Below, one piece after another: positions 11,087 through 20,247 of a stretch of 64,000 nt of DNA; position 1 is the stretch's first letter, and every line of letters begins with the position of its first letter. This stretch comes from Mycobacteroides abscessus ATCC 19977. Its GTDB lineage: Bacteria > Actinomycetota > Actinomycetes > Mycobacteriales > Mycobacteriaceae. The notes beneath the pieces are model-generated. The model saw nothing but the letters and a program-made list of their open reading frames with translations, ran no database searches and was not told the DNA's origin. A program made the position numbers and the translations under genes. Location of the stretch: contig NC_010397.1 of the NCBI RefSeq assembly GCF_000069185.1, positions 2,418,001-2,482,000 of the forward strand, read 5' to 3'.

Positions 11087-11653
11087 GTGGCGGACACACT
11101 CACCCAGGGCCAGAAGCTGGACTCGGGACAGAGCCTCACCTCGAACAACGGCGCGTACACCCTGACTTTGCAGGATGACGGCAACCTCGTGCTGACCGAG
11201 GGCGGCAGCCCGGTATGGGCCTCGGACACCAGCGGGCACTCCGCCGGCCGTGCAGAGGTGCAGAGCGACGGCAACTTCGTCGTGTACGACAACGGCGGCG
11301 GCGCACTGTGGAGCAGCAACACCGAGGGCCGTACCGACGTGAAGCTGGTTCTGCAGGACGACCGCAACCTGGTGCTGTACTCGGGCGCGGACTCCGTGTG
11401 GTCCTCGGGTACCCAGACCGACACCCCGGTTGCTCCGGCAGCTGAGTCCGTCGAGGTCGCTCCCGCGGCCGTGGAGGAGCCGGCTCCCGCGCCGGAGCCC
11501 CGCACCTACACCGTCGAGTCCGGTGACACCCTCTGGGCCATCGCTGAGCGCTTCTACGGCGACGGCAACCAGTACCAGAAGATCGCTGACGCCAGCGGCA
11601 TCGCCAACCCCGATCTGATTCAGCCGGGTCAGGTACTGACCATCCCGGAGTAG
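11087..11653 (+). CDS. Beta-prism II (bulb-type) lectin with C-terminal LysM domain
   Basis: A 188-residue protein with no visible signal peptide. Residues 1-110 hold three beta-prism repeats with mannose-site motifs: QDDGNLVLT (29-37), QSDGNFVVY (59-67) and QDDRNLVLY (90-98). The QxDxNxVxY consensus is complete in the second and third; the first has Thr for Tyr and may not bind. A Pro/Ala/Glu linker (113-137) leads to one LysM module (139-187, YTVESGDTLWAIAERFYGDG). A related mannose-binding lectin with this fold is known from M. smegmatis. LysM suggests peptidoglycan contact, but how an unsignalled protein would reach the wall is unclear. AAAGG about 9 nt upstream supports the GTG start. 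Confidence 0.88.
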   Translation: MADTLTQGQKLDSGQSLTSNNGAYTLTLQDDGNLVLTEGGSPVWASDTSGHSAGRAEVQSDGNFVVYDNGGGALWSSNTEGRTDVKLVLQDDRNLVLYSGADSVWSSGTQTDTPVAPAAESVEVAPAAVEEPAPAPEPRTYTVESGDTLWAIAERFYGDGNQYQKIADASGIANPDLIQPGQVLTIPE

Positions 11654-11724: not shown

Positions 11725-13089
11725 TTACTCCCGCAGGTAGCCGTCCGGGTGGTGGAACCAATTGCTACGTGGGGTGCGATATGGGTCGACATGCGCGGGC
11801 GGGATCCACCAGGTACGCCCGTCCGGGCCGCGGATGGTCTGCCAACACTGGTGGTCGGTTCCGAGGAGTTTGTGATGCCGCTCGCAGCCCAGCGTGAGGG
11901 ACGCTATGTCGGTGTTGCCGCCGGCCGCCCATTCATCCATGTGATGTGCCTGGCAGTGATATGCCGGTCGATCGCAGCCGGGGTAGGTGCAGCCACGCTC
12001 CTTGGCGGTCAACACAATTCGCTGATCTGCGGTGGCGATCCGCTTCGCACGACCAAGGTAGAGCGCGCGGCCGTCATCGTCGAAGACCGCCAGATAGTGG
12101 TGGGCGTGACTGGCCATCCGAATCGGGTCCGGCATGGGTAAGAGCGAGCCCCCACCCGTCGCCGCGTGACCCGCGCCGGACTCCAATTCCCGCAATGTGG
12201 TGGTGACAATGGTGGTTACCGGCAGCCCACGGTGATGGCCAAGTTCACCGGAGCACAAGATCGACCGGCAGACGGCCTTGAGTGCGTCGTGCTGGCGCTG
12301 CGCGACCGATCGAACATCGTGCCGGGCCGCGTCTGAATCTGGATCACCGTCCACACAGGGGTTTTCATCGTCGGGATGGCATACGCCGGGTGCGGCGTAT
12401 TTGGCGAAGATCGCGTCGAGGTAGGAACGTAACTCTGGATCGAGATCGAACGCACCAGCTGTCATGAGGTCCGCGCCTTGGCGACCCATCCGGAACCCGC
12501 GCCGGCGAGCCCGGTCGGTATCGCTGGTGAGACTGCCATCGGGATCGAGATGGGCCAGTAGGCGCTGGGCTGCCTTGCCGAGCTCATCGGGCCGCAGTGT
12601 CTGCGTAAGTCTGGCAAGCTGCCTTTCCGCGGTCATCCGGGTCTGAACATCGACGGTGCGGGGGACACGGTCCCAGAACCGGCGAATGACGGCGATGTGG
12701 TCGCCTCCGGCGGTGCCCGCACGCTGCGCGGCGGACGTGGCCGCCAGTACCGGTTCGATGGAGGTACCAGTCAGTGCGACGGTCGGCGCGAGCTCGGCGG
12801 CGTCCCGGATACGCCGACGTGCGTCGGCCCGGGTGATACGCAAGGTATCGGCGAGTACATCGCCCAGGCTCGCGCCCCCGAACTGTCCCGGAACATGTCC
12901 GGCGACAAGCTCATTGACAATCCCGTGGGTTGCCGTCGGGATGCGCCGCAGCAGCGTCTCCACGTCACGCAGAATCGTGAGTCGGTCATGACGCGTCAGC
13001 GCGCTCGTGTCGAGTTCCGACAGTGCGTCGACAGCCCCACAGAGCCCGGCGAGGACCTCTGCCGCATCGCTATCCGCTATCGAACTCAT
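11725..13089 (-). CDS. DUF222 / HNH-nuclease domain protein (13E12-repeat type)
   Basis: A 454-residue protein with an N-terminal helical DUF222 domain and a C-terminal HNH-like zinc-binding module: CTYPGCDRPAYHCQAHH, then W-x-GG-NT and CERHHKLLG, so the Cys and His ligands are intact. Such proteins are abundant in mycobacteria and often sit beside mobile or variable DNA; their function is not established. I use the ATG at 13089 (MSSIADSDAAEVL). An in-frame GTG at 13110 would add seven residues and cannot be excluded. It lies head-to-head with the tRNA-Pro gene and just outside the island bounded by the tRNA repeats. It is not obviously the island's recombinase. Confidence 0.82.
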   Translation of the reverse strand: MSSIADSDAAEVLAGLCGAVDALSELDTSALTRHDRLTILRDVETLLRRIPTATHGIVNELVAGHVPGQFGGASLGDVLADTLRITRADARRRIRDAAELAPTVALTGTSIEPVLAATSAAQRAGTAGGDHIAVIRRFWDRVPRTVDVQTRMTAERQLARLTQTLRPDELGKAAQRLLAHLDPDGSLTSDTDRARRRGFRMGRQGADLMTAGAFDLDPELRSYLDAIFAKYAAPGVCHPDDENPCVDGDPDSDAARHDVRSVAQRQHDALKAVCRSILCSGELGHHRGLPVTTIVTTTLRELESGAGHAATGGGSLLPMPDPIRMASHAHHYLAVFDDDGRALYLGRAKRIATADQRIVLTAKERGCTYPGCDRPAYHCQAHHMDEWAAGGNTDIASLTLGCERHHKLLGTDHQCWQTIRGPDGRTWWIPPAHVDPYRTPRSNWFHHPDGYLRE

Positions 13090-13251
13090 GTTCGAATGAT
13101 ACCGCGCCACTCCGACACGAGGGCGCCAAATGTTTTGAATGATTCACATGTGACACAAGTGTTTTCGGGGATTAGGGGCGGCCAGGGGTAAACCGAATTC
13201 AGAAAATGGCCAGACCTGCGGTAGGCTTCCGTCTGCTGCTCATCGCAGCGG

Positions 13252-13328
<77 letters not shown>

Positions 13329-13584: not shown

Positions 13585-15033
13585 ATGTTTCCTCGTTCAT
13601 TTCTGCGTGGCGGTCTGGCCGGCGTTCTGCTCGGGGCTGGAATCGGAATCGCAGCTTTCAGCACCCTGGCCTGGCTGCTGATCGCGATCCCCTTGGTCGT
13701 GGCCGGTATTGCCGTAGCGATCCGCCCACCAGAGCGGGGAGGGGGCACAGGCATCGCTGACGTCCCGTTCCGGGCTATGGCGATCGATCGCAGTGCCGAT
13801 CCGCTCGGTGGTGACGACGAAGCTCTGCTCACGGGGACCGTCACGGTGCCTGGGGATGTGGCACGGGATGTGATGCTGCGCCTACCGATGTCCGATGAGC
13901 AGGTGCGTCGCGCGGCCTCGGGGCAAGAGGTCCGCATACCTGCCCGAGACGTACCTGCGCCCGGCGATACGGTCTCACCTAGTTTTTCCGGTCGGCCGCC
14001 GACGCAGGCAGCGCTCTCGGGGGCCGTTGCCCTGGCTGTTGCGCTCACGGTGTTGACCACTGTCCCGGAGCATGTGTTCGCACTGTCGCTGCCCCGATCC
14101 GTCACCACCGCAGTGCCGTTGGTCGATGAGAGTAAAGACGGTGCTACGGTCGTCGATCTGTTCGAAACGGCGTTGGCCCACGTCCGGGCCGTCGATCCCG
14201 GCGCGCTGTCGACGCTGCTGCTCGTGTCCTCGGACACAGAAGGCTGGACCGTTGACGCGCATCGCGGGGGTGATCGTTATGTCCATCATCGCTACACCAA
14301 GACGTTCGGACAGAGCGAGCCGGAGGTCGACACCCGCGACGACGCGCGCACCAGAAACATCTTCACCGACCAGGATTTCGCGACGCTCAACATCCGCGAT
14401 GTCGTCGCGCGGACCTCGGCGATGTTTCCGAAGGGCGCCGATGAGGTGCGATCAATCGAGTTGCGGCGCCTCGATGCTGACGCGGGACGTGCGCTGCGCC
14501 TGCGGTTGAATATGGAGAGCGGTGTCGTCGTTGAGGTGCTTCCCGACGGCACCGTCGCGCCGTGGTGGGATGTCATTGATGTCGGCGAGACGATGCGTCA
14601 AGTCGTGAAAGTGGTTGCCACTCAGTGGCCGCCAGGGGCAGAAGCGATGCTCAGTCACTTCCGCTTCTATACCTCCTCGACGCAATACGGGACATTCGAC
14701 GTCGAAGCCAACATCGGCGAGGAGAAACGCAAGATCGATGTGTATGCGGGCAAATTCCCCGTCGAGGGCGTTATCGGCGCCGCCGACTCCATGCCGACGC
14801 CGTTCGCCGTCCAGGACATCGACCCGATGCGGCTGCGCGCCATACTCGATGACGCCGCCCGCCGTTTGGGTGTCGACGACGTCGATCGGCGGGAGCTGTC
14901 GTTGACGATCTTTACCCGGTCGCGCCCGAACCCGTCATGGCCGGTGGCGCGGGTGGAATACAGCCATGCAGACTCCGAGGACAGCTTGCTTTACGAGCTG
15001 CGCACAGGTCAGTACCTCGGCGCGGAAAGCTGA
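13585..15033 (+). CDS. Unknown membrane-anchored protein, copy A of the island pair (A1)
   Basis: I do not recognise this 482-residue protein. Two close hydrophobic segments occupy residues about 8-46. A soluble part of about 95 residues follows, then a third membrane segment at about 141-161. The C-terminal 320 residues are polar and would lie outside the membrane. The layout (membrane hairpin, IPLVxxGxAVxxR stretch, roughly 100-residue domain, membrane segment, large C-terminal domain) is shared with the gene at 16294-17793, although direct identity is low. It ends 3 nt from the stop of the opposite-strand gene at 15037, tail to tail. ATG 13585 has GGGCGG just upstream. No catalytic motif was seen. 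Confidence 0.75.
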   Translation: MFPRSFLRGGLAGVLLGAGIGIAAFSTLAWLLIAIPLVVAGIAVAIRPPERGGGTGIADVPFRAMAIDRSADPLGGDDEALLTGTVTVPGDVARDVMLRLPMSDEQVRRAASGQEVRIPARDVPAPGDTVSPSFSGRPPTQAALSGAVALAVALTVLTTVPEHVFALSLPRSVTTAVPLVDESKDGATVVDLFETALAHVRAVDPGALSTLLLVSSDTEGWTVDAHRGGDRYVHHRYTKTFGQSEPEVDTRDDARTRNIFTDQDFATLNIRDVVARTSAMFPKGADEVRSIELRRLDADAGRALRLRLNMESGVVVEVLPDGTVAPWWDVIDVGETMRQVVKVVATQWPPGAEAMLSHFRFYTSSTQYGTFDVEANIGEEKRKIDVYAGKFPVEGVIGAADSMPTPFAVQDIDPMRLRAILDDAARRLGVDDVDRRELSLTIFTRSRPNPSWPVARVEYSHADSEDSLLYELRTGQYLGAES

Positions 15034-15036
15034 CGG

Positions 15037-16122
15037 TCAGGGCTCCAGCGCCCGACGGGCGGCGGCCTCGATCGCTGCTAGGACTTGCAGCGGTGGGTGC
15101 AGGACGCCACGGTCGGTCAACCGGGCCACGGTGTCTTGCACACGTCGCAGGTAGGCAGCCTTCTCAGCACCGTGCGTGGTGCCCTCGGCGTGGGCCAGCA
15201 GCTTGCCTGCGGTGGTGAGGTCGGCGCGAGCCGCCGCCGGAAGATCATCGAGTGCAGCTGATTTGCCATCGGCTTCGCAGCGCACCCAGGCCCGACGCAG
15301 GGTGTCGGCCGCGGCACGGTAACGGCCGGCAAGGGCAGGATCGCCAGGATAGGCATCGGTGCGCAGCGCCTGCGCCTCGGCCAGGGCAATCTGGAAGTCC
15401 ATCACCGGTCCGCGGGTCACGTCGGTGACACCCGGGTAGCGCAGGAACAGCGCCGGGTCGAGTTCGTAGCGGCCGTATTCGGTGAGCACCGAATCGTGAA
15501 TCTGGCGGGCGACGCCCCACAGCCGCTCGTCGGCTGCCGGTGAGGCTGCGGCAGGGGACAGCACCGATTCGGTCGCCGGCTTCACGTCGGTGGGCGCGGC
15601 GTCACGCAGCGCTTCGATGATGGTCTCCGCCACTGGATCAGACGCGTTTGCCGCCACCTTAACCGTCTGCACCGAGGTCGATGAGCCGACATCGCGGGAC
15701 TGGAACCCGATCGTGAGGTACTCCGAGCCCATGACTTGATACACCCCGGCGTCGGGATGTATCAGGGTGCGGTCGGCCAGCGCGTCGCTGATCTCGACGG
15801 ATACGACCTCTGCCAGCGGGCGCACGAGATCCTGGTGGCCGATGACCTCGTCGCCGATCACCACATGGTCATCGATGATGCCCAGCCGCACCGACGCCCG
15901 GCGGCTGGCGGCTGGTCCGAAGAACCGCAGTACATAGGCCAGCGTGAGCGCGGCACTACAGGCAGAAATGATCGCCGCAGGCGCAGCGTCGAGCACTTTG
16001 AGGACGACCAGCAGGGTCGGCCCCAGCAAGACGAGACCGCCGACGATCGCCGTACGGGCTCGCATCATTGGATCGGTGTACTCGACACGCGCCGTGAGCG
16101 CGGCCAATCGTGTATCGGACAC
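15037..16122 (-). CDS. Unknown membrane protein, copy A partner (A2)
   Basis: A 361-residue protein with no recognised family. Two membrane segments (about 22-42 and 49-68) precede a beta-rich region (about 75-185) that could be PH-like, though that is only an impression. The C-terminal conserved domain (about 205-361) contains HDSVLTEYGRYELDPALFLR, then YPGVTDVT and AQALRTDAYPGDP. The same motifs occur in the gene at 17803-18897 (YGAYELDPASLLRYPAITDV, AQALRTEAYPGN, LRRAW, RGVLHPP), so the two are clear paralogues. GGAGG lies about 9 nt before the GTG start at 16122. It converges on A1 with a 3-nt gap, an arrangement repeated in copy B. Confidence 0.78.
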   Translation of the reverse strand: MSDTRLAALTARVEYTDPMMRARTAIVGGLVLLGPTLLVVLKVLDAAPAAIISACSAALTLAYVLRFFGPAASRRASVRLGIIDDHVVIGDEVIGHQDLVRPLAEVVSVEISDALADRTLIHPDAGVYQVMGSEYLTIGFQSRDVGSSTSVQTVKVAANASDPVAETIIEALRDAAPTDVKPATESVLSPAAASPAADERLWGVARQIHDSVLTEYGRYELDPALFLRYPGVTDVTRGPVMDFQIALAEAQALRTDAYPGDPALAGRYRAAADTLRRAWVRCEADGKSAALDDLPAAARADLTTAGKLLAHAEGTTHGAEKAAYLRRVQDTVARLTDRGVLHPPLQVLAAIEAAARRALEP

Positions 16123-16293
16123 GGGCAGGCACCTCCGCTGTACGAGTATGGCACTACCGGAAATTCGATCCTCTCATCTTGGCCCGCGTACGCTGCCGCG
16201 CAGTGGAATCACGCACTGCCGACAATTCAAGCCACATGGATCTTCTTGAGGCGCGCTACTAGCATCAGGAGACCGTCGTCGGCAGGGGGTTTG

Positions 16294-17793
16294 ATGAATC
16301 GCGCGACGCGACGTGTTGGCTGGGTCGGTGCGGCTGGTGCCGTCATCGGGATTGGTATTGGACTCGGCTCCTATAACCCTTGGCCGGTGGCGTTGATTGT
16401 GGGGATACCACTTGTGACGGTGGGGCTCGCGGTTGTGCTGCGGGTCTCCCGTGCTTCCGAGTATGAGAGGTTTCGTCTTGCGGCAGCTTCGGATGGAGTG
16501 CCGACCCGAATCGAGGCACTAACCCGCAGCAGTGTTGGTGACGGCGATCTGCAACCGACTTTGATGGTGGCGACGATCAGTCCACCGCATGACACCGAGT
16601 ATCAGGGGCGGTGGATAGCGTCGATGTCAGGCGAGGACTTCAAGTCTCTGGCTGCCAGTCCGGTCACCGCACTGGCACCGGATAGGTTGCCTTCACGGCA
16701 AGTACCGGGCACGCCAAGCTTCAACGATCGCCGCCGGACGTGGGCGTTGATCTCTCCGGCGCTGTCTATCCTGGTGGCAATGGCCGTGCTCTTCGGTGTC
16801 GGCGATGCCTGGCACATTTCATTGACCACGCCTGCAGCGCCGACGCCGAGTGTGAACAATGACTCCAAGTCGAAGAGCATGGAACTCAATGCTCGCCGAG
16901 ACGGCATGATCCGGGCCATCACCGAACAATTCGGTCCTGCCGCCACCAACAATCTGCTCGATCTACGCTTCACCGGCAGCGGCTCGGACTATGGCACGAT
17001 ACTGGACCCCACGAACGGCGCGGTGAGCATTGTCTATATCAATAACAATGGAGATGCGTTCACCACAGCCTCACCGCAGGTTCTACGCAAGGACAGCACC
17101 TTCACTGCCGGCGAGATCGCATCGACCGATTTGAGCGCACTCATCGAGAAGATGGCCCATCAAGCCGATTCGGCTCAACGGTTGAGCGCCCTGGGGACAC
17201 TGGAGATTAAGCGATCAGGCCCGGGCGCGCCGGTGATCCTGACCGGCTCATTCGGCCGCAGAAGCATCAACGCACTTCCGAATGGCACCGTGGGTGAGAT
17301 CTTCGATCCGGCAGATTTCGCTGTCTCGTTCCAGAGGGCTCGGGATGCCCTGAGACTGGCGGGAATCACCGCATCAGATCGAGTGTTGACCGACTTCGAG
17401 ATCCGGGGCAGCCACCGGGCCACCCCCATCGCGCGGCCAAGTGAGGTCCAGAACACTGGTGGTGTGGTGCTGGAGTTTGTAACCGGTGATCGATCCGGCC
17501 AGATTGTCCTGGTGCCAGGAGAAATCCCGAAGGTCACCGATAAATCCTACCGTTCAGCATCGCAACCATTTGCCTTCGACGATGTTTCTGCGGAGGTCTT
17601 CGAATCTGTTCGGGCACAGGCGATGCAGCGCGGGGCCCTTGAGCCCTATGAACGCGAGGCCGTCGACATCTGGGTAGGCGACCAGGTGATCGACCCGTTC
17701 CGGTTGGCGATCCGCGTGGAGCTCGCCGGTGTCGACGCGGCGACGGGGACGTATTCGCTAGATGGCCGATTCCTGGCCCCTGGGTCCCGCTGA
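16294..17793 (+). CDS. Unknown membrane-anchored protein, copy B of the island pair (B1)
   Basis: A 499-residue protein of unknown function with the architecture of A1. A double hydrophobic stretch lies at residues about 8-50 (GAAGAVIGIGIGLGS, then ALIVGIPLVTVGLAVVLR). A polar domain and a membrane segment at about 152-175 follow, then a large C-terminal domain of about 320 residues. I start at ATG 16294, preceded by GGGGG. The frame is open further upstream to 15736, but that part lies opposite A2 and shows no conserved residues. It ends 9 nt short of the stop of the opposite-strand gene B2. No enzyme signature is visible; a sensor or envelope role would be a guess. Confidence 0.75.
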   Translation: MNRATRRVGWVGAAGAVIGIGIGLGSYNPWPVALIVGIPLVTVGLAVVLRVSRASEYERFRLAAASDGVPTRIEALTRSSVGDGDLQPTLMVATISPPHDTEYQGRWIASMSGEDFKSLAASPVTALAPDRLPSRQVPGTPSFNDRRRTWALISPALSILVAMAVLFGVGDAWHISLTTPAAPTPSVNNDSKSKSMELNARRDGMIRAITEQFGPAATNNLLDLRFTGSGSDYGTILDPTNGAVSIVYINNNGDAFTTASPQVLRKDSTFTAGEIASTDLSALIEKMAHQADSAQRLSALGTLEIKRSGPGAPVILTGSFGRRSINALPNGTVGEIFDPADFAVSFQRARDALRLAGITASDRVLTDFEIRGSHRATPIARPSEVQNTGGVVLEFVTGDRSGQIVLVPGEIPKVTDKSYRSASQPFAFDDVSAEVFESVRAQAMQRGALEPYEREAVDIWVGDQVIDPFRLAIRVELAGVDAATGTYSLDGRFLAPGSR

Positions 17794-17802
17794 CTGGTGA
17801 TC

Positions 17803-18897
17803 TTAGGTCGGCTGTGCCGCCTCGATGGCCCGGCGAGTCACAGCTTCTAGTTGCGCCAATTGCACTTTGGGTGGATGCAGAACACCCCGCTCGACGAGTT
17901 TGGTGATGATGTCTCGGACACGGCCGTAATAGGCGGCTTGTTCTGCGGGCGTCGCGCCCGATATAGCGTGGTTGTAAAGCTTTACTGCCGTGCCCATTTC
18001 GGTTCGGTCGGCCGGTTCGAGGTAAGAGGTCCCAACCTTCTTGCCATACGATTCACATGCGATCCAGGCTCGGCGTAATGCCACTACAGCCTGCCCGTAG
18101 GCGTCGGCCAGGCTCCGGTTACCGGGGTAGGCCTCGGTGCGCAATGCCTGTGCCCGATCGAGGGCGACGTGGAACATCTGGGTAGGTTCGGCGGTCACAT
18201 CGGTGATAGCCGGGTAACGCAACAAGCTCGCCGGGTCCAATTCGTAGGCGCCGTACGCGCCGAGAATATCGTCGTGACGCTGACAGGCATACTCCCACAA
18301 CCGTTTAGCCGCCTCATCGGTACCGGCATCAGCAATCCGCGCACCCGAACCGAAATCAGACGGGACGTCTCCAGGCGGCGACTCAGACAGTGCGGCGTGG
18401 ATACGACTGACTATGTGCGTGACCGCGGGATCTGATCCGACAACTGCGACCCGCCACTCATCGTCTCCGCCGTCCGTGGCGAAGGTCAGCGTCAAATACT
18501 TCTGGCCTCGCACCATCAGGCGCCGGATATCCATGTCCACCAACGTTTCGCTGGCTGGACCGTCTTGGCTCATCGCAACCAGCGATGCGAGCTGGTAGCT
18601 GACAACCCCGTGAGTCTCGTCGCCGAAATGAACGGTGTCCCGGTCAACGGTGAGCTGGACCGCCCCCGGTGCACCGAGACGCCCATAGGCCACCGCAGCC
18701 AACCCGACAGTGATAAGGACGGCCACTACCGACCCGGTTAACGCCCCCGACGCGCCGGCATAATTGAGCCCCGTCAGCGCAATCAGCCCGGACGCTAAAA
18801 CCGCCCCCGCAGCAAGAGCCGACCATCGATGACGTCTGGTCACATACTCAGTGCGAGCGGTCACCGGAACCGTCACGGCACCCTCAGCGCAATTCAT
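17803..18897 (-). CDS. Unknown membrane protein, copy B partner (B2)
   Basis: A 364-residue paralogue of A2 (15037-16122). Two membrane segments lie near the N-terminus. A middle domain with the same length and texture (TVHFGDETHGVVSYQLASLV, compare VVIGDEVIGHQDLVRPLAEV in A2) precedes the conserved C-terminal region from HDDILGAYGAYELDPASLLR to RGVLHPPKVQLAQLEAVTRR. I place the start at ATG 18897 so that TARTEYV aligns with TARVEYT of A2; ATG 18909 and the upstream 18939 codon are alternatives, and no clear ribosome site distinguishes them. It converges with B1 across a 9-nt gap, repeating the A1/A2 layout. Confidence 0.78.
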   Translation of the reverse strand: MNCAEGAVTVPVTARTEYVTRRHRWSALAAGAVLASGLIALTGLNYAGASGALTGSVVAVLITVGLAAVAYGRLGAPGAVQLTVDRDTVHFGDETHGVVSYQLASLVAMSQDGPASETLVDMDIRRLMVRGQKYLTLTFATDGGDDEWRVAVVGSDPAVTHIVSRIHAALSESPPGDVPSDFGSGARIADAGTDEAAKRLWEYACQRHDDILGAYGAYELDPASLLRYPAITDVTAEPTQMFHVALDRAQALRTEAYPGNRSLADAYGQAVVALRRAWIACESYGKKVGTSYLEPADRTEMGTAVKLYNHAISGATPAEQAAYYGRVRDIITKLVERGVLHPPKVQLAQLEAVTRRAIEAAQPT

Positions 18898-19287
18898 CGA
18901 ACTGAGCATACGGACACACCGCGGCTCCATCGAGCGCACGCGGCAACGGCGTACCGGTGTTTGGAACCTTGCGCGAAGTCGCGTTCAAAACCGAACACCA
19001 TCCCATCCGGGCCCGACGCAGATTAAGGCCACATAAGTCAATACTAAGAACCATACTTAATATTTGTGTTGCTGAGAATTACTCCACGCGGGATAGCCGG
19101 TCAACAAGCGCAACGGCCCTCGGCACCCGAGCGTAGCGAGAAGCCAATGGCGGTCTAAGAATTCGCCAAGGCTTAGCCATTCCTATCGGGTGATCGGCTA
19201 CGGTGCAGTTTCGAGATTGATTGTGCGCGCCCAGCTTTAACGTGTGACCGTCTGGCTGGGCGCCGAAACATCGTGAAGGAGAACGCA
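18898..19287. other. Intergenic region between B2 and the LpqH-like gene
   Basis: This 390-nt stretch has no convincing gene. Around 19030-19080 it is markedly A/T-rich (for example CATACTTAATATTTGTG). Close to the lipoprotein gene is a perfect 9-bp inverted repeat, GCGCCCAGC at 19227-19235 and GCTGGGCGC at 19255-19263, with a 19-nt loop. The hairpin would fall in the 5' leader of the lipoprotein mRNA. It probably holds divergent promoters for B2 and the lipoprotein, though I could not assign -35/-10 boxes firmly. Confidence 0.4.
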
Positions 19288-19776
19288 ATGCAGCGCACCG
19301 GCAGTGTGGTTGTCATAGGAGCAGGGGCGATCATCGCTTTGGGCTTGGCTGGGTGTTCGGGTGATGGGAATGAATCGGCGCCCTCTTCAGCGGAAAAGAC
19401 CACGGTCAGCGCCGAAGGTGGTGCCGCAGCGATGAATAGCAGCGCCAAAGTGGTCGTGGACGGCAAAGAGAAAAAGGTCGAAGGCGCTATCGCGTGCTCC
19501 ACTGCAGCCGGGCAAGTCAATATCGGAATGGGCGCCGGGATGCAGGCAATCGCCGTGGTGCTATCCGACGGCGATTCGCCCAAGGTGACCTCGGTAGGCC
19601 TGGGCAACATCGACGGTGTGACCCTGGGCTTTGCGGACGGGGCTCCAGGTGGAAAGGCAACCGCAACAAAAGATGGCAAGAAATACACCGTGACCGGCAC
19701 GGCAACCGGCGTGGACACAGCCAACCCCATGCAACCGATTGAGAAGCCCTTCGAAATCGAAGTCACCTGCCCCTAG
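19288..19776 (+). CDS. LpqH-like (19-kDa antigen family) lipoprotein
   Basis: A 162-residue secreted lipoprotein. A signal peptide leads to the lipobox LGLAGC, with the Cys lipidated at about residue 24; a Ser/Ala/Glu-rich tether follows, then a beta-rich domain typical of the mycobacterial lipoprotein antigen family. The domain retains the two Cys of the family, in AIACSTAAGQ and at the very end, EVTCP, which probably form a disulfide. ATG 19288 is preferred because AAGGAGAA precedes it; the in-frame GTG at 19273 lies within that ribosome site region. Mycobacteria often have several LpqH paralogues, so this one within a tRNA island is probably accessory. A strong terminator follows at 19809-19852. 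Confidence 0.88.
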   Translation: MQRTGSVVVIGAGAIIALGLAGCSGDGNESAPSSAEKTTVSAEGGAAAMNSSAKVVVDGKEKKVEGAIACSTAAGQVNIGMGAGMQAIAVVLSDGDSPKVTSVGLGNIDGVTLGFADGAPGGKATATKDGKKYTVTGTATGVDTANPMQPIEKPFEIEVTCP

Positions 19777-20201: not shown

Positions 20202-20247
20202 ACTGGGGGTCAAGTGGTCGCAGGTTCAAATCCTGTCGGTCCGACCA
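20202..20247 (+). repeat. Right 46-bp direct repeat: detached 3' half of tRNA-Pro
   Basis: It matches 13283-13328 at 44 of 46 positions and ends with the encoded CCA. No acceptor 5' strand or D arm precedes it (the upstream bases are TTCGTATCTGT), so it cannot form a tRNA and is best read as an attachment-site copy. The TetR gene of the flanking DNA ends 15 nt beyond it. Confidence 0.85.

What the first reader, a model, noticed from the sequence alone, without database searches (positions are those of the whole stretch)
13585..18897. Duplicated convergent pair of unknown membrane proteins: a candidate undescribed two-gene system
The island carries gene A1(+)/A2(-) and then B1(+)/B2(-), each pair meeting tail to tail with 3 and 9 nt between stops. 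A2 and B2 are clear paralogues (YELDPA-LLRYP--TDVT, AQALRT-AYPG, RGVLHPP). A1 and B1 share architecture: membrane hairpin, about 100-residue domain, membrane segment and about 320-residue outer domain. Duplication of the whole convergent pair implies that the two products work together. Such tight convergence is unusual for partners and could balance their levels through antisense transcription. Defence, toxin/immunity or envelope sensing are all open.
Basis: partly seen in the sequence, partly recalled or inferred. Interest (0 to 1): 0.72.

Follow-up and report, generated by a model that had tools for sequence, protein, structure and literature searches.

The report
Paired membrane proteins in mycolate-making bacteria
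Two unnamed membrane protein families that nearly always sit side by side on opposite strands in mycobacteria and their relatives look like the two halves of one membrane complex linking an outward-facing sensor to a conserved part inside the cell, but what it does has not been shown.

Summary
In detail: A1(+)/A2(-) and B1(+)/B2(-) meet tail to tail with 3 and 9 nt between stops; A2/B2 are 39% identical, A1/B1 24% (E 5e-14). No Pfam, NCBIfam, PADLOC or PHROG family covers them. The partnership is real: 88 distinct neighbouring family 1-family 2 pairs were catalogued. The layout is not what matters: 69 of 88 are convergent, 19 divergent, 0 co-directional. The 'duplication' is not local: A and B are old sub-lineages, each nearer to pairs in other genera than to one another, joined in an island at a tRNA-Pro(GGG) hot spot. 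Predicted anatomy: family 1 = membrane hairpin, small cytosolic beta domain, membrane helix, four PepSY-like units outside; family 2 = PH-like domain with an inserted membrane hairpin, plus a conserved cytosolic helical domain ('YELD', my name). By segment length, 63 of 88 pairs have both inner segments, 25 lack both, none is mixed, which suggests contact; but only 2-3 changes on the trees support this. Best reading: a two-protein inner-membrane envelope-regulating complex, working like PepSY regulators (YpeB, TseB/CopD) with its own cytosolic partner. Defence and toxin readings gained no support.

The parts
13283..13328 (+). 3' end of tRNA-Pro(GGG), left copy of the 46-bp direct repeat
20202..20247 (+). 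right copy of the 46-bp tRNA-Pro 3'-end repeat (96%)
13585..15033 (+). A1, family 1 (A clade): TM hairpin, inner segment, TM3, outer domain
15037..16122 (-). A2, family 2 (A clade): PH-like part with TM hairpin, YELD helical domain
16294..17793 (+). B1, family 1 (B clade), 499 aa
16300..16449 (+). B1 membrane hairpin (residues 3-52)
16498..16674 (+). B1 small beta domain between TM2 and TM3 (residues 69-127), predicted cytosolic
16885..17781 (+). B1 outer array of four helix-plus-strands (PepSY-like) units (residues 198-496)
17803..18939 (-). B2, family 2 (B clade), 378 aa
18382..18864 (-). B2 PH-like domain with TM hairpin inserted after strand 1 (residues 26-186)
17815..18318 (-). B2 helical YELD domain (residues 208-375), the most conserved domain of family 2
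15043..15540 (-). A2 YELD domain (about residues 195-360, by alignment)

Best explanation
Family 1 and family 2 are the two subunits of one inner-membrane complex that regulates or senses something in the cell envelope. SHOWN by sequence: two homologous pairs; neighbourhood on opposite strands conserved across genera; one segment of each partner is present or absent together. PREDICTED: family 1 spans the membrane three times (N-in), holds a small cytosolic beta domain between TM2 and TM3 and carries about 300 residues of four PepSY-like units outside; family 2 is a cytosolic PH-like domain anchored by a hairpin, followed by the cytosolic YELD helical domain. INFERRED: the family 2 PH-like domain docks on the family 1 inner domain (they come and go together); the variable PepSY-like array binds or reads an exported envelope enzyme or wall state; the well-conserved YELD domain passes this to a common cytosolic target. 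The convergent arrangement is one of two layouts and is not the mechanism. The A and B pairs in the window are two old specificities gathered at a tRNA hot spot.
Against: No Pfam PepSY match: PF03413 finds three other places in the genome, none here. The four units show hardly any profile similarity to each other (best u2-u3, P 0.0007). The passages read say that the PepSY domains of YpeB and of CopD do not seem to bind their enzymes directly, so 'PepSY array binds the enzyme' is not the safe analogy. The coupled segments rest on 2-3 changes on the trees, one to three independent contrasts; seven rows were classed by length because the inner-domain profile missed them. Linked genes correlate in distance anyway. 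No envelope enzyme is a constant neighbour. No complex was modelled. PH-like and PepSY-like rest on AlphaFold models from 46 and 40 sequences (pLDDT 90 and 80, pTM 0.52 and 0.57); only B1 and B2 were modelled.
Confidence: 0.5

Rival explanations
1. Anti-phage or inter-element defence module carried on a tRNA-borne island: family 1 senses infection at the membrane, family 2 is the effector.
For: tRNA-Pro(GGG) is an integration hot spot (partial copies near the tRNA in several relatives); patchy presence (9 of 98 genomes of the genus with A2 as query, two of them C-terminal matches only; family 1 in 73 of 401 genomes of the family); two-gene format.
Against: No PADLOC match in the four proteins or in 47 neighbours; no relative in viral contigs (family 2) or phage records (B2) and one partial match in plasmids (A2); in 12 of 13 Gordonia loci the pair sits at one position beside secA2; no nuclease or NTPase family match.
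Confidence: 0.1
2. Toxin/immunity or toxin-antitoxin pair whose balance is set by overlapping convergent 3' ends.
For: Tight tail-to-tail layout in many loci; no terminator-like site at either junction in the window.
Against: 19 of 88 pairs are divergent, including the sisters of A; 11 loci have 1.25-1.54 kb and a gene between the partners; both proteins are large multi-domain membrane proteins; L025 keeps family 2 with a shortened family 1, and L167 and L170-L172 have family 2-type genes without a detected family 1.
Confidence: 0.06
3. A membrane scaffold or trafficking pair with no signalling role, for instance an assembly factor for a secretion or lipid-transport machine (Gordonia copies lie next to secA2).
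For: Next to secA2 in 12 of 13 Gordonia loci; near dxr and rip1 in seven Mycolicibacterium-type loci; PH-like domains are often scaffolds (recalled).
Against: Neighbours differ between lineages; no constant cargo or machine gene among those scanned.
Confidence: 0.2
4. Recent local duplication of one pair followed by fast divergence.
For: Two homologous pairs side by side in the same orientation.
Against: Separate clades in both trees (98-99 SH-aLRT); WINA groups with Nocardia/Mycolicibacterium A pairs, WINB with mycobacterial B pairs; two genomes carry A and B about 245 kb apart or on separate contigs (L022/L035, L024/L027).
Confidence: 0.03

Closest known systems
YpeB (C-terminal tandem PepSY domains; structure 5boi)
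   Different: No sequence match to PepSY; four units; extra inner domain and hairpin; the genetic partner is a membrane/cytosolic protein, not the lytic enzyme SleB.
TseB / CopD (membrane proteins with two PepSY domains linked to penicillin-binding proteins)
   Same: Membrane anchor with PepSY units outside; CopD meets its enzymes through TM and cytosolic parts, TseB through its PepSY part (PMC10653890, passages).
   Different: CopD has one TM and a 16-residue cytosolic tail; no dedicated PH/helical partner gene is mentioned in the passages seen; other phyla.
4exr, CD1622 putative lipoprotein (its PepSY assignment is recalled, not tested)
   Different: A solved chain of 152 residues without the membrane and inner parts.
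Bacterial PH domains (PF08000 PHb; bPH_10 YqeB-like PF23494)
   Same: Family 2 residues 22-191 align to PH folds, among them two Shewanella PH entries; one distant family 2 protein has a sub-threshold bPH_10 match, E 0.035.
   Different: Sequence below every cut-off; hairpin inserted after strand 1; followed by the YELD domain.
Stand-alone YELD proteins of actinobacteria (unnamed; e.g. 225 aa, M. lacus)
   Same: Share the YELD helical domain.
   Different: One TM helix, no PH-like part, no family 1 neighbour seen in the stretches looked at.

Membership tests
PepSY (PF03413) | match to the Pfam profile | tested here: not met
   No family for A1 and no PepSY for B1 up to E 1; PF03413 search of the own genome gives 3 places, none in the island
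PepSY (PF03413) | one helix plus four antiparallel strands, often in tandem | tested here: met
PepSY regulators (YpeB/TseB type) | PepSY units on the outer side of the membrane | tested here: inconclusive
   Hydropathy and charge favour N-in, units outside; no experiment
PepSY regulators (YpeB/TseB type) | acts on a wall or exported enzyme | not testable with these tools
   Only a lineage-specific GH5-like gene between the partners (11 loci)
Bacterial PH domain | seven strands capped by a C-terminal helix | tested here: met
Bacterial PH domain | Pfam bPH profile above cut-off | tested here: not met
   None for A2 or B2; best relative 14 bits against a cut-off of 27
Known anti-phage defence system | match to a PADLOC model | tested here: not met
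   four proteins and two relatives, E up to 0.1; 0 of 47 neighbours at E 1e-5
Type II toxin-antitoxin pair | two small genes in one co-directional operon (definition recalled) | tested here: not met
   361-499 aa membrane proteins on opposite strands; 0 of 88 pairs co-directional
Integrative genomic island | direct repeats of a tRNA 3' end at both borders | tested here: met
   46 bp, 96%
Integrative genomic island | own integrase | tested here: not met
   The 15 ORFs of 100 aa or more that lie between or reach into the repeats (A1, A2, B1, B2, LpqH-type, and ten others) give no integrase in Pfam

The most novel reading that the evidence does not exclude
A previously undescribed class of transmembrane envelope signalling module of mycolic-acid bacteria: a swappable external PepSY-like sensor is read through an inner contact with a PH-like partner and relayed by a conserved actinobacterial output domain (YELD) that also exists as thousands of stand-alone membrane-anchored proteins.
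Probability: 0.3. Interest if true: 0.75.

Novelty: new variant of a known kind. Interest (0 to 1): 0.52.

Why it matters
If right, it gives an anatomy and a partner contact to two families that carry only 'hypothetical' or 'uncharacterized' names in the hits listed here, found in 73 of 401 genomes of the family examined (a lower bound since few candidates per genome were scored), among them opportunistic mycobacteria, Nocardia and Gordonia. It also singles out a well-conserved, unnamed actinobacterial helical domain (3415 relatives of one stand-alone form above threshold) as the likely output. And it shows a pair keeping together while flipping between tail-to-tail and head-to-head, which separates partnership from transcript overlap as explanations.

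Tried and rejected

Rows dropped: 4 duplicate pairs (L135, L175, L177, L178) before the count of 88; 7 family 2 rows without a detected family 1 partner (L025, L053, L167 twice, L170, L171, L172); L137 (broken) and L148 (contig end) gave no row. Seven rows (L161-L164, L166, L168, L169) were classed 'long' for family 1 in the script because their segments are long, although the inner-domain profile missed them; five of these (L161, L163, L166, L168, L169) also lack a PH profile match and were classed 'long' by length. By profile alone the count is both 56, neither 30, PH only 2 (L162, L164). Rows L019 and L169 were left out of the distance correlation.
Full report
WHERE. The window lies at 2,418,001-2,482,000 of contig 2 of a 5.09-Mb, two-contig genome. 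The nearest named proteins are from Mycobacteroides (A2 96%, A1 97%). The size would suit M. abscessus ATCC 19977 (recalled, not tested). The four genes lie between tRNA-Pro(GGG) at 13252-13328 and a second copy of its last 46 bp at 20202-20247. G+C is about 0.60-0.62 over 16-21 kb against 0.63-0.66 over 12-17 kb. Between the repeats lie A1, A2, B1, B2 and a gene for an LpqH-type lipoprotein (PF05481, E 1.7e-36); none of the 15 ORFs of 100 aa or more there gives an integrase in Pfam. The tRNA is a hot spot: in a search of 41 genomes, extra 40-48-base copies of its 3' end lie within some tens of kilobases of the full gene in several (for instance G011, G020, G021). In Mycobacterium sp. D16Q14 (L014) the A pair lies beside the same tRNA, within a different insert and without the B pair in the 21 kb held.

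THE OBSERVATION. All stated features were confirmed (see the check). The genome has no further copy of either family at E 1 apart from a 26-residue match at E 0.24.

THE PARTNERSHIP. Family 2 as the only query gave 40 loci in the genome collection. By tblastn, 39 of 40 have family 1 sequence directly beside it; in L025 it is only the N-terminal part and in L019 it is in pieces. The exception is a partial, distant match in Pseudonocardia (L053). Working from family 1, 51 stretches were fetched: 49 have a family 2 frame beside it, in 11 of them with one gene between; L137 has it in pieces and L148 ends at a contig end. Four of the 49 (L124, L125, L129, L135) have a family 2 frame that stops before the last 80 or so profile positions. 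Among 199 genomes of the order, 11 have family 1 at E 1e-5, 10 with family 2 adjacent and one (G245) with it one gene away; one search scored few candidates per genome and missed at least G112, where one search finds two family 1-type frames beside family 2. The reverse is weaker: 27 of those 199 have a family 2 match, because the C-terminal helical domain alone is widespread. Several mycobacteria carry it as a protein of about 217-225 aa with one TM helix and no family 1 neighbour seen, and one such protein has 3415 relatives above threshold, none of the 120 listed with a Pfam domain or a name beyond 'hypothetical', 'uncharacterized' or 'secreted'. In a draw of 296 genomes of the phylum that stand-alone protein matches 13, in four genera. 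G112 and G124 also hold family 2-type genes without a detected family 1 beside them (L167, L170-L172).

LAYOUT. 88 distinct pairs: 69 convergent, 19 divergent, 0 co-directional. All ten sisters of the Mycobacteroides A pairs in the trees, from Nocardia (5), mycobacteria (4) and one Rhodococcus record, are divergent. In 11 loci of one genus the convergent partners are parted by 1.25-1.54 kb holding a GH5-like gene on the strand of family 2 (Pfam PF00150, E 1e-10, for the one scanned; the others 86-90% identical to it over about 320-328 residues). Overlap of 3' ends is therefore not a conserved need. The absence of co-directional pairs is striking, but the trees need only two layout changes, so it is not a strong statistic.

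NOT A LOCAL DUPLICATION. In quick trees of the YELD domain and of the outer domain, built from the same 88 pairs, WINA sits with L014 and then with the ten divergent pairs (98 and 99 SH-aLRT), WINB with other mycobacterial pairs (15 rows, 99 in both). One search warns of long branches, among them the one that leads to WINA and L014. Over the aligned cores WINA and WINB are 16% (outer domain) and 51% (YELD) identical, while, L014 aside, WINA reaches 31% and 63%, and WINB 77% and 86%, with pairs of other species. Two genomes carry both types apart: L022/L035 on one contig about 245 kb apart, and L024/L027 on separate contigs of one assembly. The island thus joins two old lineages. Pairwise distances of the partners correlate at 0.88 (86 pairs), as expected of linked partners but also of any linked genes.

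COUPLED SEGMENTS. Between TM2 and TM3 family 1 has either about 70-160 residues or 9-24; between its hairpin and YELD family 2 has either about 98-183 residues or 15-58. Values out of line (L041, L052, L135, L162, L163, and no value for L161, L164, L169) come, as I read, from a hydrophobic stretch counted as a TM, a mis-called start or a missed TM, and were judged. Long goes with long in 63 and short with short in 25 of 88; no mixed pair. By profile alone it is 56 both, 30 neither, 2 with PH only. On the trees this needs two or three changes, one to three independent contrasts, all concordant: suggestive, not significant. The plain reading is that the two inner domains contact each other.

CONSERVATION. 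Within family 2 the mean column conservation is 0.76 for YELD (and for the ten residues of strand 1), 0.60 for the rest of the PH-like domain; in family 1 it is 0.54-0.59 for the outer units and 0.61-0.66 for the inner domain, hairpin and TM3 (the two alignments hold different sets, so the comparison across families is rough). The inner helical domain is the best-kept domain and the outer array, linkers aside, the most variable part of family 1, as one expects of a sensor or adaptor outside and a common target inside. This is inference.

NEIGHBOURS. In Gordonia secA2 is near the pair in 12 of 13 loci, PPK2 in 12, an ldh-type gene in 11 (BLAST clusters, representatives named). In seven Mycolicibacterium-type loci dxr and rip1 are near. 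In four Nocardia loci scanned, the next gene beyond family 1 is a DUF2804 gene (3) or a CAP-domain gene (1). None is constant. No PADLOC family matches 47 neighbours that I chose from 11 of the 40 loci, none of them Gordonia.

MECHANISM AND LIMITS. I commit to an inner-membrane envelope-regulating complex (about 0.5), with the partnership itself near 0.9. The outer ligand, the inner target and any phenotype are unknown. It works like PepSY regulators such as YpeB and TseB/CopD, with the caution that the passages seen report no direct enzyme contact for the PepSY parts of YpeB and CopD; it is not filed as a PepSY family member because the profile test failed. The contact of the inner domains and the YELD fold can be tested at once with tools that I could not run here.

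Noticed in passing
window 13252-13328 and 20202-20247: tRNA-Pro(GGG) integration hot spot with a 46-bp repeat; several relatives also carry partial copies near the tRNA.
   Followed up: partly
window 19273-19776: LpqH/19-kDa-type lipoprotein gene inside the island (PF05481).
   Followed up: no
window 11725-13110: DUF222 gene with a sub-threshold HNH match directly before the tRNA.
   Followed up: no
window 11087-11653: Small protein that by eye looks like a mannose-lectin-type domain with a C-terminal LysM motif (not scanned).
   Followed up: no
L145, L146, L150, L151, L154-L160 (and L148): A GH5-like gene lies between family 2 and family 1 in one genus; it also follows family 1 in L148, where the contig ends.
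   Followed up: partly
L076-L084: Widespread unnamed stand-alone membrane-anchored YELD-domain proteins in mycobacteria.
   Followed up: partly
L136, L139, L173: Two family 1 genes in a row beside a single family 2 gene.
   Followed up: no
L166, L168-L172 (genome G124): Six family 2-type genes in one genome, three with a detected family 1 neighbour.
   Followed up: partly
L025, L137, L019: Family 1 appears shortened (L025) or in pieces (L137, L019), with family 2 kept or in pieces.
   Followed up: no
L052/L135, L124, L125, L129: Family 2 frames that stop about 80 profile positions before the end of the YELD domain, in Gordonia rhizosphera and in three genomes of one other genus.
   Followed up: no
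L019: Record titled Rhodococcus sp. JCM 9791 is placed in Cyanobacteriota by the lineage table; probably a labelling or contamination problem.
   Followed up: no
L070, L165: Sub-threshold DUF2786 (PF10979) match within the YELD domain.
   Followed up: no
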